Shown: positions 1 to 8,572 of the stretch, in pieces
Position numbering within the stretch: position 1 is the stretch's first letter
Layout of the letters: the number at the start of each line of letters is the position of its first letter
DNA from: JACRDV01 sp024860865 [NCBI: Methanobacteriota archaeon]
GTDB lineage: Archaea > JACRDV01
Direction: 5' to 3'
NCBI GenBank assembly: GCA_024860865.1
Contig: JACRDV010000025.1
Location: 1 to 8,572 of the forward strand
Length of the DNA stretch: 8,572 nt
Program-made: the position numbers and the translations under genes
The notes under the pieces: generated by a model
What the model was told of the DNA's origin: nothing
The model's database searches: none
What the model saw: the letters and a program-made list of their open reading frames with translations, nothing else

Positions 1-1561
1 ACTTAATTATTGAATTATAAAACAAAAACTTTAGCTTGACCTCTTTTAGCATGTTTCTCTTTTTAGAAGCCATAACATGCTCTCCAGTTAGCCTTTTAAC
101 AGAGGATAGATTTCCTTCAGCATCCCACCTGTAGCCATAGTTATACTTCTTAGCCACTTTTTCTAAAAGTTCATACCTATAAGATTTCACTAAGGGATTA
201 AATATGGGTATTTGAAATGCTTTTTTAAGTTGATGAAAACCTTTTATAACAACAAATTTATTTCCTTCTCGTGTAGTTTCTTGGTGTGACTTAATACCAA
301 GATCCTCTAAAAGTTTTTCAATAAGATCAGAATTCGGATAGCTTTCTATTCCAATTTCCTGTTTTGGTACAGAAACCCATCCATCTGAATCCACAATTCC
401 TTGAATGAAGGAAGCCTCAAACTTACGTTGCGCTGTAAAAATCCAATCCATTTTCAACGGCGCATAAGTTGTTGTCTCATAGTTCTTTAATCCTAACAAT
501 ACATTAAATATGTATGTGTTAAGAGCAGAACTTTGACTTCGCCAGCAATAAAATTTCCTTTCACCAGAATCTATATCGGTAACTCTATGCATTCTTAATC
601 CCATTGCATTAACACATAAACTTACAAACTCTCCAAATCTAAGGTTACTCTTATAATTTTTAGACAATTTTAATTCTATGTGAATATTCCCAATGTGCCC
701 TTTTTTTGGTTTGTGCTTGCCACAATCTCCAACTAATGCTCCTAGAAAATAGGCAAAAAATTCATACTTGTTTTGTTTTATGTCAGTAAGGGAAAGCCCA
801 AATTGTTTTCCCTTTTCAAAAATTTCGTTCAAAGGTTTAAGTTGATCTATAACTCCTTTTACATCTTCCCAGCGTTTTACAATTATTGGGACTTGAATAA
901 ATGGTTTTTCAGGTAATTTAGCTCCTCTAACATTTAAATTTAATAATTGGTGGTACTTTTTTGGTTTTCCTAACTGTGTATAAATTTCAAAGAAATGCCA
1001 AACTTTTGGAAGAGACCTACACGTAACGAACGCTTGAGTTGTTCCTTTTGGTAGGTGAAGCTTCCTATCTATGTGCTTAAATTTTTCCCCATTCAAATAC
1101 AGTTTGAGGCCCTTTAAGAATATTTCAAATCGCCTAATATCTTTTGGTCTTATGGGTTTCCAGTAAAAATACTCAAGAAATTGTAAGTTCTTCTTTTTAA
1201 TGTGATTTAAAAGTCTTTGAATAAGCCTATTTGGCATTTTTGGTGCTATTTTCCTCTTTATTATACCGAGTTTACGGAAATAAGAGGCTACTGTAGTTGG
1301 ATGCACTTTATACATACTAGCTATAGTTTTGATGTCGGCATTTCTCTTGTACAATTCTTCCCATTCATGTAGCACTTTTCTATTTATTTTAACTGCATAT
1401 GGTTTGTTTCTTCCACAAAGCCATCTTTTAATTGTGCCGAGTGGAATTTTGAGTTGACTTGCTATTTTATGATATTTTAGTTCCTCATTACGGAGTTTTA
1501 TCGCTTCATTGTAAAGTTTCCTTCTTTTTTCATATAACTTAAATTTCTTCTCTATATCCAT
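1..1561 (-). CDS. LAGLIDADG homing-endonuclease-like protein with two N-terminal HTH segments (partial, C-terminus beyond window)
   Basis: An uninterrupted reading frame of 520 codons runs from an ATG at 1561 off the left edge without a stop. Two LAGLIDADG-type helices are visible: YFLGALVGDCG at residues 271-281 (acidic D279) and FIQGIVDSDGW at 385-395 (acidic D393). This is the spacing of a monomeric two-motif DNA endonuclease or a maturase-like relative. The N-terminus holds two helix-turn-helix-like stretches: about 28-50 (HKIASQLKIPLGTIKRWL) and about 77-100 (IKTIASMYKVHPTTVASYF). The segment between about 105 and 265 is Lys/Arg-rich and I do not recognise it. No intein splice motifs are seen and the gene has its own ATG, so a free-standing protein is the simplest reading. 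There is no convincing Shine-Dalgarno; an in-frame GTG at 1579 is an alternative start. The gene is visibly more A/T-rich than the conserved genes to the right, which fits a transferred element. The family call is firm, but cleavage activity and target are unknown. Confidence 0.85.
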   Translation of the reverse strand, partial: MDIEKKFKLYEKRRKLYNEAIKLRNEELKYHKIASQLKIPLGTIKRWLCGRNKPYAVKINRKVLHEWEELYKRNADIKTIASMYKVHPTTVASYFRKLGIIKRKIAPKMPNRLIQRLLNHIKKKNLQFLEYFYWKPIRPKDIRRFEIFLKGLKLYLNGEKFKHIDRKLHLPKGTTQAFVTCRSLPKVWHFFEIYTQLGKPKKYHQLLNLNVRGAKLPEKPFIQVPIIVKRWEDVKGVIDQLKPLNEIFEKGKQFGLSLTDIKQNKYEFFAYFLGALVGDCGKHKPKKGHIGNIHIELKLSKNYKSNLRFGEFVSLCVNAMGLRMHRVTDIDSGERKFYCWRSQSSALNTYIFNVLLGLKNYETTTYAPLKMDWIFTAQRKFEASFIQGIVDSDGWVSVPKQEIGIESYPNSDLIEKLLEDLGIKSHQETTREGNKFVVIKGFHQLKKAFQIPIFNPLVKSYRYELLEKVAKKYNYGYRWDAEGNLSSVKRLTGEHVMASKKRNMLKEVKLKFLFYNSIIK

Positions 1562-1586
1562 CTTGCTTATCTTTCTCACTTCTCAC

Positions 1587-1602: not shown

Positions 1603-1638
1603 TTTATTTCTTTTGGTGTAGTGTAAAGCCTATAGTCA

Positions 1639-1747
1639 GTTCTGTTGCATTTTCGAGACTCAACTTTCCTCCCATCTGCTCACAGCCTTTTTTAAGGGAC
1701 TGCTCAAAGCTTCAACTGAAGAGGCTATTACGGGCGAACCGCACCCG
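1639..1747 (-). ncRNA. Candidate orphan TnpB guide-RNA (omega RNA/reRNA) scaffold
   Basis: In IS200/IS605 TnpB systems the guide RNA is transcribed in the tnpB direction, covers the 3' end of tnpB and the right end, and its guide is the flanking DNA. This remnant keeps the structural parts. At 1731-1747 the RNA strand reads CGGGUG-CGGUU-CGCCCG, a 6-bp hairpin. Bases 1655-1657 and 1679-1681 (GAG with CUC, plus a G-U pair) can form a second helix. The terminus at 1639-1655 is identical to the right-hand copy. The stems differ in sequence from that copy yet still pair. The predicted guide begins at 1638 and reads leftward on the minus strand as TGACTATAGGCTTTACAC. Expression and a partner TnpB are not shown here. 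Structure and homology are seen; function is inference. Confidence 0.5.
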
Positions 1748-1814
1748 CTCATCTTGATTATTTTTGCCTTTCCTTTCCTATACCCATTGGTTTAGCTCAT
1801 AGCACTTCGAGCAG
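1639..1814 (-). pseudogene. Decayed 3' end of a tnpB gene with IS200/IS605-type right end
   Basis: Read on the minus strand, this stretch is homologous to the 3' end of the better-preserved tnpB at 8184-8411. It starts with a zinc-finger half, codons C-S-K-C at 1802-1813, matching C-P-K-C in the intact copy. After five more codons (Y-E-L-N-Q) and W-V it hits an in-frame TAG. Further along, D-E-R-V-R-F corresponds to D-E-G-V-R-F but lies in a different frame from the final A-V-S-R, which matches A-V-G-R at the intact C-terminus. The copy is therefore frameshifted, and about 45 bases are missing between the hairpin and the terminus. The first 17 bases (1639-1655) are identical to 8184-8200 and mark the element end. 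No coding capacity for a transposon nuclease remains. Homology was judged by eye from several aligned blocks. Confidence 0.75.
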
Positions 1815-1829
1815 GTTCAATATTTAACT

Positions 1830-1850
1830 TTCAAATATATAAGTTGAGAG
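1830..1850 (+). repeat. Promoter-like direct repeat, copy 1
   Basis: The sequence TTCAAATATATAAGTTGAGA here closely matches the sequence at 1941-1960 in the same orientation. It contains a TATA-like core with TCAA and TTGA arms around it. AGGTGA follows at 1851-1856, but no reading frame of useful length opens behind it (the GTG frame stops after five codons). It may be a duplicated or dead promoter. Confidence 0.45.
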
Positions 1851-1940
1851 AGGTGACCGAAAGTATTTAGGTTAACTCGGAAAATTCAGAACCATGTTAC
1901 AAATCTTTTGACATCGGGAAAATTATTCAAAAACGATATC

Positions 1941-1989: not shown

Positions 1990-2067
1990 TTGAGAAGACG
2001 TCCGGAAGGAGAGCCGGAAGAAGAATGGGAAGAAGAATGGGAGGAAGAAGAAGAGGAAGAATGGTAA
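1990..2067 (+). CDS. Highly acidic Glu/Trp microprotein, 25 aa
   Basis: A TTG start at 1990 is preceded by GGGGGTGA (1978-1985) four bases upstream and by a TATA box at the right distance. The frame ends in TAA at 2065-2067. The product begins M-R-R-R-P-E-G-E-P and continues as three blocks of glutamates each closed by a tryptophan (EEEW, EEEW, then seven E and W). Three basic residues at the N-terminus precede 14 or more glutamates, so the protein is very acidic and must be unstructured or need a basic partner. The coding DNA contains a near-perfect 12-base repeat, GAAGAAGAATGG. I do not recognise a family. Possibilities are a nucleic-acid-mimic or inhibitor peptide, or a chance frame over a purine-rich repeat. 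The combination of promoter, ribosome site and frame favours a real gene. Confidence 0.5.
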   Translation: MRRRPEGEPEEEWEEEWEEEEEEEW

Positions 2068-8131: not shown

Positions 8132-8183
8132 TTTTATCATCCGATTAAAAGTTTTTGGCAAGTATTAAATATTTAGGTGCTAT

Positions 8184-8342
8184 GTTCTGTTGCATTTTCG
8201 GGACTTGAAAAATAATTTTTTCTCATCTGCCCACAGCCTTTAATGCAACTTCTGGGCTTAGGCTCGGCGGATTAGAGTTCATTGATCCCCCGTTCCGCTT
8301 CAACACTGCATTTGCCCAGCTATCTGGAGTGAACCGCACTCC
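8184..8342 (-). ncRNA. Predicted TnpB guide RNA (omega RNA/reRNA) scaffold
   Basis: The RNA strand has a perfect 6-bp hairpin GGAGUG-CGGUU-CACUCC at 8326-8342 and a possible long-range helix between GGG (8230-8232) and CCC (8200-8202). Between these is a local A/T stem GAAAAA-UUUUUC at 8207-8222. The scaffold ends at 8184, and the guide would be copied from 8183 leftward, beginning ATAGCACCTAAATATT. Overlap with the 3' end of tnpB is the norm for this system. The 5' boundary is arbitrary. Confidence 0.55.
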
Positions 8343-8572
8343 TTCATCTTGGGTTTTTAACAAATTGATTGCAGCATTAAGCTGCCTGTCTATTAATCCA
8401 CACTTGGGGCAGCTTGCAAGGTGTACATTCAAGTATTCCAAATTTGACCCACATATCGTGCACCTTTGCGAAGTCCCCTTTGGGTTTACTTCGATTATTT
8501 TGGCTCCTTCCCAGAGAGCTTTATACTTTATAAAATTTTGAAGCCTCCTCATGCAAGCTTGGTTTAGCCTTC
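8223..8572 (-). CDS. tnpB: TnpB RNA-guided nuclease, C-terminal part (N-terminus beyond window)
   Basis: The last 115 residues are present and the frame stays open to the right edge; the internal Met at 8552 is not the real start. A zinc ribbon is seen at C37-x2-C40 and C54-x2-C57 of this fragment. It is followed at once by the last RuvC catalytic aspartate in L-I-D61-R-Q-L-N-A-A-I-N-L-L, and preceded by the V-N-P-K-G-T-S-Q-R-C motif typical of TnpB/OrfB. These proteins are guide-RNA-directed DNA nucleases that help the element persist at its donor site. The visible catalytic and zinc residues are intact, so this copy could be active if the missing part is sound. The final residues (T-P-D to A-V-G-R) are also the DNA for the guide-RNA scaffold, so their sequence is constrained by RNA structure. 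Confidence 0.9.
   Translation of the reverse strand, partial: RLNQACMRRLQNFIKYKALWEGAKIIEVNPKGTSQRCTICGSNLEYLNVHLASCPKCGLIDRQLNAAINLLKTQDEGVRFTPDSWANAVLKRNGGSMNSNPPSLSPEVALKAVGR

What the first reader, a model, noticed from the sequence alone, without database searches (positions are those of the whole stretch)
1731..1747. Compensating base changes keep the guide-RNA hairpin of a dead TnpB copy
On the RNA strand the decayed copy reads CGGGUG-CGGUU-CGCCCG and the intact copy (8326-8342) reads GGAGUG-CGGUU-CACUCC. The loop is identical. Of six stem pairs, pair 1 changed G-C to C-G, pair 3 A-U to G-C, and pair 5 U-A to U-G; all still pair. The tnpB frame of the left copy is broken around this place. 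Preservation of pairing with changed sequence points to selection on RNA structure rather than on protein. This may have acted before decay, or may still act if the RNA is used in trans by another TnpB.
Basis: partly seen in the sequence, partly recalled or inferred. Interest (0 to 1): 0.75.

Follow-up and report, generated by a model that had tools for sequence, protein, structure and literature searches.

The report
Guide-RNA remnant of a gutted transposon
A shrunken jumping gene in an uncultured archaeon has lost the gene for its RNA-guided DNA-cutting protein but keeps the conserved guide-RNA structure and a promoter-like block, and its relatives have unexpected ends for this type of element: inverted repeats and duplicated target sites.

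Summary
The hairpin and its compensating changes are real. They belong to a conserved omega-RNA (TnpB guide-RNA scaffold): six copies in this archaeal MAG and two distinct copies from two other archaeal genomes all form the six pairs, several with changes on both sides, and a second, long-range stem covaries. Amino acids coded by the changed stem positions vary, so RNA structure is what is kept. The left copy is not a frame-broken tnpB: the tnpB body is absent. What remains is a promoter-like block, about 70 nt of spacer, the omega-RNA, the right end and a flank that would be the guide (window 1638-1893, minus strand). Relatives are not IS1341-like: their ends are 22-24-bp inverted repeats (GGTTCTGTTGC...) and three pairs of ends in two genomes share an 8-bp flank, as expected of DDE-type target duplication; the pairing of ends is inferred because contigs break inside the elements. 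All six canonical left ends have TTT just before the 8-bp target copy; the right side shows no mirrored AAA (0 of 3). That is what a TAM in register with the guide would give. Transcription and use in trans are untested, and the left copy's changes may all predate loss of tnpB.

The parts
1870..1893 (-). degenerate left terminal inverted repeat (GGTTCTG-AATTTTCCGAG...) of the left, internally deleted element
   Evidence: sits directly upstream of the promoter-like block, as the 24-bp repeat does in C50 and C118; aligned by eye, imperfect and gapped
1833..1867 (-). promoter-like block AATACTTTCGGTCACCTCTCTCAACTTATATATTT with archaeal TATA-like core (promoter role inferred)
   Evidence: 23-base core at 1833-1855 is one of 7 matches in the genome at up to 3 mismatches, 0 in the reversed control; two of the seven lie at tnpB 5' ends
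1638..1763 (-). omega-RNA scaffold plus right end of the left copy
   Evidence: covariance model R1, 104.6 bits; this copy is one of the six the model was built from
1731..1747 (-). stem A, the reported hairpin CGGGUG-CGGUU-CGCCCG
1638..1661 (-). right terminal inverted repeat of the left copy, ...GAGTCTCGAAAATGCAACAGAAC
   Evidence: inverted repeat of the C50 left end GGTTCTGTTGCATTTTCGGGACTT with a few differences
1618..1637 (-). predicted guide of the left copy (flank-derived)
   Evidence: sequence right after the right end, different in each own-genome copy; guide role by analogy with ISDra2
8223..8572 (-). 3' part of tnpB of the right copy (TNB zinc finger PF07282), cut by the contig end
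   Evidence: contig is 8572 bases
8183..8358 (-). omega-RNA scaffold and right end of the right copy
   Evidence: covariance model R1, 154.3 bits; also one of the six the model was built from
8326..8342 (-). stem A of the right copy, GGAGUG-CGGUU-CACUCC
8163..8182 (-). predicted guide of the right copy
   Evidence: flank after the right end

Best explanation
The left copy (about 256 bp, 1638-1893, minus strand) is an internally deleted, non-autonomous derivative of an archaeal TnpB transposon. It has kept the left-end promoter-like block, the complete omega-RNA scaffold and the right end; the flank supplies the guide. The reported hairpin is stem A of that scaffold, and its base changes were filtered by selection to bind TnpB (pairing shown at family level by covariation; TnpB binding inferred). 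The tnpB-bearing relatives, seen only as 5' and 3' halves at contig ends, lie between 22-24-bp terminal inverted repeats with 8-bp target duplications and no transposase gene in the parts seen, so they were most likely moved in trans by a DDE transposase. TnpB loaded with omega-RNA would recognise the empty site: a TTT motif (the TAM) followed by the 8-bp target and right flank, which the guide matches. It would cut element-free copies of the locus and so favour retention or homing of the element. A TnpB made elsewhere in the genome could load the left RNA in trans. Seen in the sequence: conserved pairing, left-end block, inverted repeats, three shared 8-bp flanks, TTT phase. Inferred: that paired ends are one element, transcription, TnpB loading, cleavage, trans use.
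For: Stems A and B covary in six own copies (0.722 vs 0.265 shuffled, 0/500) and the whole model in ten sequences (0.487 vs 0.174, 0/500). The model finds relatives in other archaea: G353 72 bits, G078 three identical places at 55.8 bits. Left end: repeat plus promoter-like block in the same order as C50 and C118. Shared 8-bp flanks: C118/C147 ATAGTAGA; G078 C7/C23 TACCAAGC; G078 C28/C16 GTGGTAAA. TTT directly before the 8-mer in 6 of 6 canonical left ends, with CAT, CCG, TGC and not AAA after the duplication on the right. A second gutted copy, with both inverted repeats on one contig and an intact stem A, exists in G353 (304 bp). A Sulfolobus TnpB uses the T-rich TAM TTTAA (passages of PMC10640517); reRNA is made from the 3' end of tnpB plus right end plus flank (passages of PMC8612924).
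Against: No expression data. Single-sequence folding of the left RNA is no better than shuffles (z 0.38), and the minimum-energy fold of C151 lacks stem A. The number of pairs with a double change in stems A and B is not unusual against shuffles (83 of 500), and related sequences can exceed shuffles without structure. The left inverted repeat of the left copy is degenerate, its two flanks share no 8-mer by eye, and TTT lies one base off the expected place. The G353 deleted element, the only one of this family with both ends on one contig, shows no 8-bp duplication (CGCTCTTC vs TCTTTTAC). The left ends of C50 and G078 C22 have no partner. No transposase with the same ends was found. Stem B of the left copy pairs 6 of 6 only when shifted by one base (5 of 6 in the aligned register). 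Keeping of the RNA could reflect recency rather than selection after tnpB loss.
Confidence: 0.7

Rival explanations
1. Plain decay: the left copy is an inert remnant; the compensating changes accumulated while the lineage still encoded tnpB, and nothing acts on the RNA now.
For: No close tnpB-bearing parent is known: identity to each of the other five copies is 65-68% in unpaired columns. Its left inverted repeat is degenerate. In G078 other remnants have lost stem A (C12, by eye) or one pair of it (C8).
Against: The four truncated own-genome copies found (left, C8, C34, C151) all keep the whole omega-RNA and right end, and a search with left end plus tnpB start found no copy with tnpB start but no 3' end, apart from the two cut by contig ends. 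This is weak: three of the four were found with 3'-end queries, the middle of tnpB could not be searched, and four sites match only the promoter-like block. The promoter-like block of the left copy is intact.
Confidence: 0.45
2. Protein-level selection: the hairpin is kept because tnpB codes through it.
For: The loop codes Arg-Phe in 8 of 8 copies, including a synonymous CGG to AGG change in G078.
Against: Amino acids at the changed stem codons are not conserved whereas pairing is; in the left copy a stop codon lies between the two arms of stem B, which still pair.
Confidence: 0.05
3. The TTT motif before the duplicated target is a target-site preference of the unknown transposase, not a TAM.
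For: No cleavage data; insertions lie in A+T-rich flanks.
Against: A dimeric DDE transposase would be expected to give a mirrored signal; right flanks start CAT, CCG, TGC (0 of 3 AAA). The motif is on the side that a TAM must occupy.
Confidence: 0.3

Closest known systems
ISDra2-type TnpB and its reRNA/omega-RNA (IS200/IS605 family)
   Same: TnpB with OrfB_IS605 and TNB domains (G353 relative; TNB in the right copy); guide RNA from the 3' end of tnpB plus right end, guide from the flank (passages of PMC8612924); T-containing motif on the left
   Different: Here the ends are perfect or near-perfect inverted repeats with shared 8-bp flanks; ISDra2 integrates without target duplication
IS1341-type tnpB-only elements
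   Same: tnpB without a transposase gene in the parts seen
   Different: Bao and Jurka 2013 state that TnpB-only elements lack TIRs and TSDs (passage of PMC3627910); these have both
Eukaryotic Fanzor elements in DDE transposons
   Same: TnpB-like nuclease carried between TIRs with TSDs (passages of PMC3627910; PMC10711439)
   Different: Those are of eukaryotes and their viruses; the elements here are archaeal and TnpB-type
IS6- and ISL3-type insertion sequences
   Same: CTGTT near the start of the repeat (IS6 loci L159, L172; ISL3-like element on C8); 8-bp duplication in the ISL3-like element (AAAAGAAT). That IS6 elements make 8-bp duplications is recalled
   Different: No such transposase seen inside the TnpB elements; the rest of the repeat differs; L159 and L172 showed no matching 8-mers in their flanks
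MITE-like deletion derivatives of IS605 elements (PATEs); recalled, and seen only as a search listing
   Same: Short non-autonomous derivative that keeps the ends
   Different: The derivative here also keeps a full guide-RNA scaffold and a promoter-like block

Membership tests
TnpB/omega-RNA (OMEGA) systems | TnpB protein with RuvC and TNB zinc finger | tested here: met
   Right copy (3' part only): PF07282 1.7e-18; guided_TnpB 71.6 bits, below the curated 100. G353 relative, part scanned: PF07282 and PF01385 over cut-off, guided_TnpB 95 bits, below 100. The C118 N-terminal part matches no TnpB model
TnpB/omega-RNA (OMEGA) systems | structured RNA spanning the tnpB 3' end and right end, followed by a variable flank | tested here: met
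TnpB/omega-RNA (OMEGA) systems | TAM-dependent RNA-guided cleavage | not testable with these tools
   TTT before the target copy in 6 of 6 canonical left ends is suggestive only
IS200/IS605, IS1341 group | no terminal inverted repeats and no target-site duplication | tested here: not met
   24-bp inverted repeat (C50 vs C147, 24 of 24), 22-bp in G078; three shared 8-bp flanks
IS200/IS605, IS1341 group | Y1 transposase in the genome, or its end hairpins | not tested
   no tnpA search was run
IS6 (or ISL3) family | encodes the family transposase | tested here: not met
   no transposase ORF in the parts of the elements seen; own genome has no IS6 match at 1e-15, only three weak ones. The middles of the elements are not assembled
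IS6 (or ISL3) family | family-type ends and 8-bp duplication | tested here: inconclusive
   8-bp shared flanks seen; ends resemble the IS6 and ISL3-like ends found only in the first 9-10 bases
MITE (non-autonomous deletion derivative) | short, no complete gene, both inverted repeats | tested here: inconclusive
   left copy: right repeat kept, left repeat degenerate; G353 C181 copy: both repeats present, no 8-bp duplication

The most novel reading that the evidence does not exclude
Archaea carry TnpB transposons that move by DDE-type transposition supplied in trans, with the TnpB guide made of the duplicated target plus right flank and the TAM (TTT) lying just outside the duplication. TnpB here has changed its mobilising partner, a prokaryotic counterpart of Fanzor capture, and insertions in the wrong phase or orientation to a TAM are not kept. 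Gutted copies persist as promoter-driven stand-alone guide RNAs served in trans by TnpB.
Probability: 0.45. Interest if true: 0.78.

Novelty: new variant of a known kind. Interest (0 to 1): 0.58.

Why it matters
TnpB, the ancestor of Cas12, is described in prokaryotes as travelling in IS200/IS605 and IS607 elements, with Y1 or serine transposases (passages). Elements with inverted repeats, 8-bp duplications and a TTT motif in register with the guide would show that the nuclease can serve a different transposition chemistry, and would separate what TnpB does (cut empty sites) from how IS605 moves. Stand-alone guide RNAs with promoters would make trans-acting guides directly testable.

Tried and rejected
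Rfam: no family at gathering score for the window or for four other loci. A first alignment with two wrongly cut sequences (A1) was discarded and replaced by A2. Close relatives in named genomes: one locus, 45% identity; none in viral contigs; both searches used a single 115-aa query, which finds close relatives only. A gapped DNA pattern in viral contigs gave one hit, L173; it overlaps a long phage-like ORF and the covariance model does not match it: chance. Pattern hits L081, L082, L083 and L085 in four other genomes were not followed up. Model hits in G048 and G212 are weak (E 0.0097 and 0.0036) and probably chance; G291 (9.9e-5) lacks the GCAACAG end and no tnpB was seen beside it.

Screen for inverted repeats at 27 other archaeal TnpB loci: L039 gave no ORF, for L035 and L040 the script picked a wrong ORF, and several loci are cut at contig ends, so fewer than 27 were usable. 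L021 and L028 gave a repeat; that of L028 lies inside coding sequence.

Literature: the listings of ten searches showed no paper on prokaryotic TnpB elements with inverted repeats and target duplications; the library holds only open-licence papers, and one likely relevant paper (10.1073/pnas.2308224120, recalled) is not held.

Guide matches elsewhere could be checked only in about 0.2 Mb of overlapping loci of this genome, by the first 13 nt of each guide: apart from the copies themselves, one 14-nt match of the C151 guide in L062, not preceded by TTT, taken as chance.

The p-value for TTT (about 4e-10 to 2e-9) was computed after seeing the pattern and with an assumed T frequency; it is a guide only. 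Simulated P values for the stems assume unlinked random substitutions.

On rereading I mended these: 'full-length relatives' (only halves are seen), the stop between the arms of stem B, the shuffle result that does not favour covariation, and the bias in how truncated copies were found.

Full report
Observation. Both hairpins are present as described on the minus strand at 1731-1747 and 8326-8342, with identical loops, two double changes and one single change, and full pairing in both. Five random substitutions in this stem would keep all six pairs in about 0.6% of draws.

What the left copy is. On the minus strand the similarity to the right copy starts near 1766 and ends at 1638. Upstream no tnpB is recognisable. 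Instead there is a block, AATACTTTCGGTCACCTCTCTCAACTTATATATTT, which also heads the two tnpB 5' ends found in this genome, C50:20812 and C118:6039, and before it a degenerate form of their terminal repeat. So the left copy joins a left end to an omega-RNA with about 70 nt of spacer: an internal deletion, not a broken reading frame. Three-frame translation of 1639-1900 shows scattered stops.

Other copies in the genome. The MAG (1.54 Mb, 160 contigs; the window is the whole contig C114) holds four more copies of the 3' end: C147 (96% protein identity, contig end), C151, C34 and C8. C151, C34 and C8 are 5'-truncated. Thus the four truncated copies found, the left one included, keep the complete omega-RNA and right end. 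A search with 452 nt of left end plus tnpB start gave 11 matches: the query itself, C50, four sites matching only the promoter-like block (C118:3277, two on C136, C2), three right ends (C147, C114, C8) and two short matches of 19-21 nt. No copy with tnpB start but without 3' end was found apart from the two cut by contig ends. The comparison is biased, since three of the four truncated copies came from 3'-end queries and the central part of tnpB is not assembled and could not be searched.

RNA structure. Aligned (A2), the six copies give a consensus with stem A (the reported hairpin), a long-range stem B and an inner arm. Stems A and B: 98.6% of cells paired against 75.1% in shuffles, covariation 0.722 against 0.265, 0 of 500 shuffles as high; sliding the partner by one column halves the pairing; but the number of pairs with a double change, 6, is reached by 83 of 500 shuffles. 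The whole structure: 93.0% paired against 77.7%, covariation 0.464 against 0.205, 0 of 500; 10 pairs with a double change, reached by 5 of 500. The tool warns that related sequences can exceed shuffles without structure. In the left copy stem B is CCUCUU/GGGAGG, nine substitutions from the right copy's CUGGGC/GCCCAG and fully paired, but only after a one-base shift; in the aligned register 5 of 6 pairs form. A covariance model from A2 finds the six copies and, in a search of 394 archaeal genomes with the stricter filters, matches at E<=0.01 in five others, of which G353 (72 bits) and G078 (three identical places, 55.8 bits) are strong. With these, a weak match in G291 and a decayed G078 copy, ten sequences give covariation 0.487 against 0.174 (0 of 500); that alignment is fitted to the model and leans towards it. 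Stem A forms all six pairs in the eight intact distinct copies; the decayed G078 C8 copy has five of six, and the G078 C12 remnant has lost the hairpin (by eye, sequence; no model match). The amino acids coded across the stem vary while the loop codes Arg-Phe in 8 of 8, so the stem is kept as RNA and the loop may be kept as both. Against this, folding each sequence alone gives no significant stability (left z 0.38, C151 -1.26, C8 -0.45, C34 -0.95, right -1.51).

The element is not IS1341-like. The left end of C50, GGTTCTGTTGCATTTTCGGGACTT, is the exact inverted repeat of the right end of C147; C118 differs at one base. In G078 the repeat is GGTTCTGTTGCGTAATCGGGAG. Comparing six left flanks with eleven right flanks gave three exact 8-bp matches, each within one genome: ATAGTAGA (C118/C147), TACCAAGC (G078 C7/C23), GTGGTAAA (G078 C28/C16). 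Three further G078 right-type ends (C8, C12, C26) were not in that comparison; by eye their flanks match none. Each pair lies on two contig ends that break inside the element, so that they are one element is inferred. The C50 and G078 C22 left ends have no partner, and the G353 C181 element, with both ends on one contig, has no duplication. A screen of 27 other archaeal TnpB loci (not all usable, see Tried and rejected) showed a repeat of 16 bp with up to 2 mismatches in two, L021 and L028; that of L028 is inside coding sequence. L021 is a second TnpB subfamily in G078: a 1289-bp element with CAGGCTGTTTC ends, a 398-aa TnpB frame and a 9-bp duplication ATTGCCTGT.

TTT phase. In all six canonical left ends (G000 C118, C50; G078 C7, C22, C28; G353 C181) the three bases before the 8-bp target copy are TTT. 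The bases after the duplication on the right are CAT, CCG, TGC. The left copy of the window has TTT one base closer (TTT plus 7 nt) and is not counted. A transposase preference would be expected to be symmetric; a TAM is not. Sulfolobus TnpB uses TTTAA (passages of PMC10640517). With guide = duplicated target + right flank, only the empty site offers TTT followed by the full target; the left junction matches 8 nt and the right junction lacks the motif. This last step is reasoning, not a test.

Who moves it. The genome has no IS6 transposase at E<=1e-15; three weak matches are a fragment at the start of C143 and two C8 ORFs. G078 has one IS6-like gene at that threshold, with other ends (L167). 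One C8 ORF, C8:10702-11934, is ISL3-like (NF033550, 143 bits, below its cut-off of 180; PF01610 over cut-off) with ends GACACTGTTCGG.../GAGACTGTTCGG... and an 8-bp duplication AAAAGAAT. It resembles the TnpB ends only in the first bases, so the transposase is unknown.

A second gutted copy. G353 C181 has a 304-bp element with both inverted repeats, a zinc-finger scrap of tnpB and an omega-RNA with intact stem A, so loss of tnpB with retention of omega-RNA seems to have happened at least twice. A longer tnpB relative is on C204 of the same genome, in two overlapping frames, with a run of N near its 3' end and its left end off the contig.

Literature. Bao and Jurka 2013 state that TnpB-only elements lack TIRs and TSDs and describe TIR-bounded eukaryotic Fanzor elements (passages of PMC3627910); PMC10711439 reports Fanzor2 elements with TIRs and TSDs (passages). 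PMC9956272 describes hairpins at the ends of most IS1341 elements (passages). PMC12558985 was searched for six terms on truncated or non-autonomous copies without a hit. The listings of ten searches showed no prokaryotic counterpart; the library is partial.

Verdict. The hairpin is ordinary in kind, an omega-RNA stem, and well supported. The unusual parts are the copy that keeps promoter-like block and guide RNA without tnpB and, more so, the terminal repeats, shared 8-bp flanks and TTT phase of the family.

Noticed in passing
window 2-1579 (minus): 526-aa ORF just downstream of the left omega-RNA: weak helix-turn-helix matches, LAGLIDADG_3 just over its cut-off, and a C-terminal tail (463-523) matching IS5 transposase NF033579 at 1.9e-7, below cut-off. 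C95:1-66 carries a near copy of that tail. Possibly a homing endonuclease fused to or inserted in an IS5 remnant.
   Followed up: partly
window 1833-1855 (minus); C118:3293, C118:6075, C136:2366, C136:3534, C2:414, C50:20848 of G000: Seven copies of a promoter-like motif CACCTCTSTCAASTTATATAYTT at 0-1 mismatch, none in the reversed control. One precedes an ORF that looks Lrp-like by eye; those on C2 and C136:2366 seem to precede non-coding sequence with short hairpins (by eye; no Rfam match). A regulon or small-RNA promoter class?
   Followed up: partly
L021 (G078:C5), 1289-bp element: Second TnpB subfamily with inverted-repeat ends CAGGCTGTTTC and 9-bp duplication ATTGCCTGT.
   Followed up: partly
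L079 (G000:C8:10702-11934): ISL3-like element with 8-bp duplication AAAAGAAT, about 5 kb from the C8 omega-RNA remnant.
   Followed up: partly
L167 (G078:C4:8645-9319): IS6-like transposase with GGTTCTCTTCG ends and a 9-bp repeat GATCGTAGC at both flanks.
   Followed up: partly
window 1990-2067 (plus): Short frame coding a strongly acidic repeat (EEEWEEEW-like) between the left element and the phosphoesterase gene.
   Followed up: no
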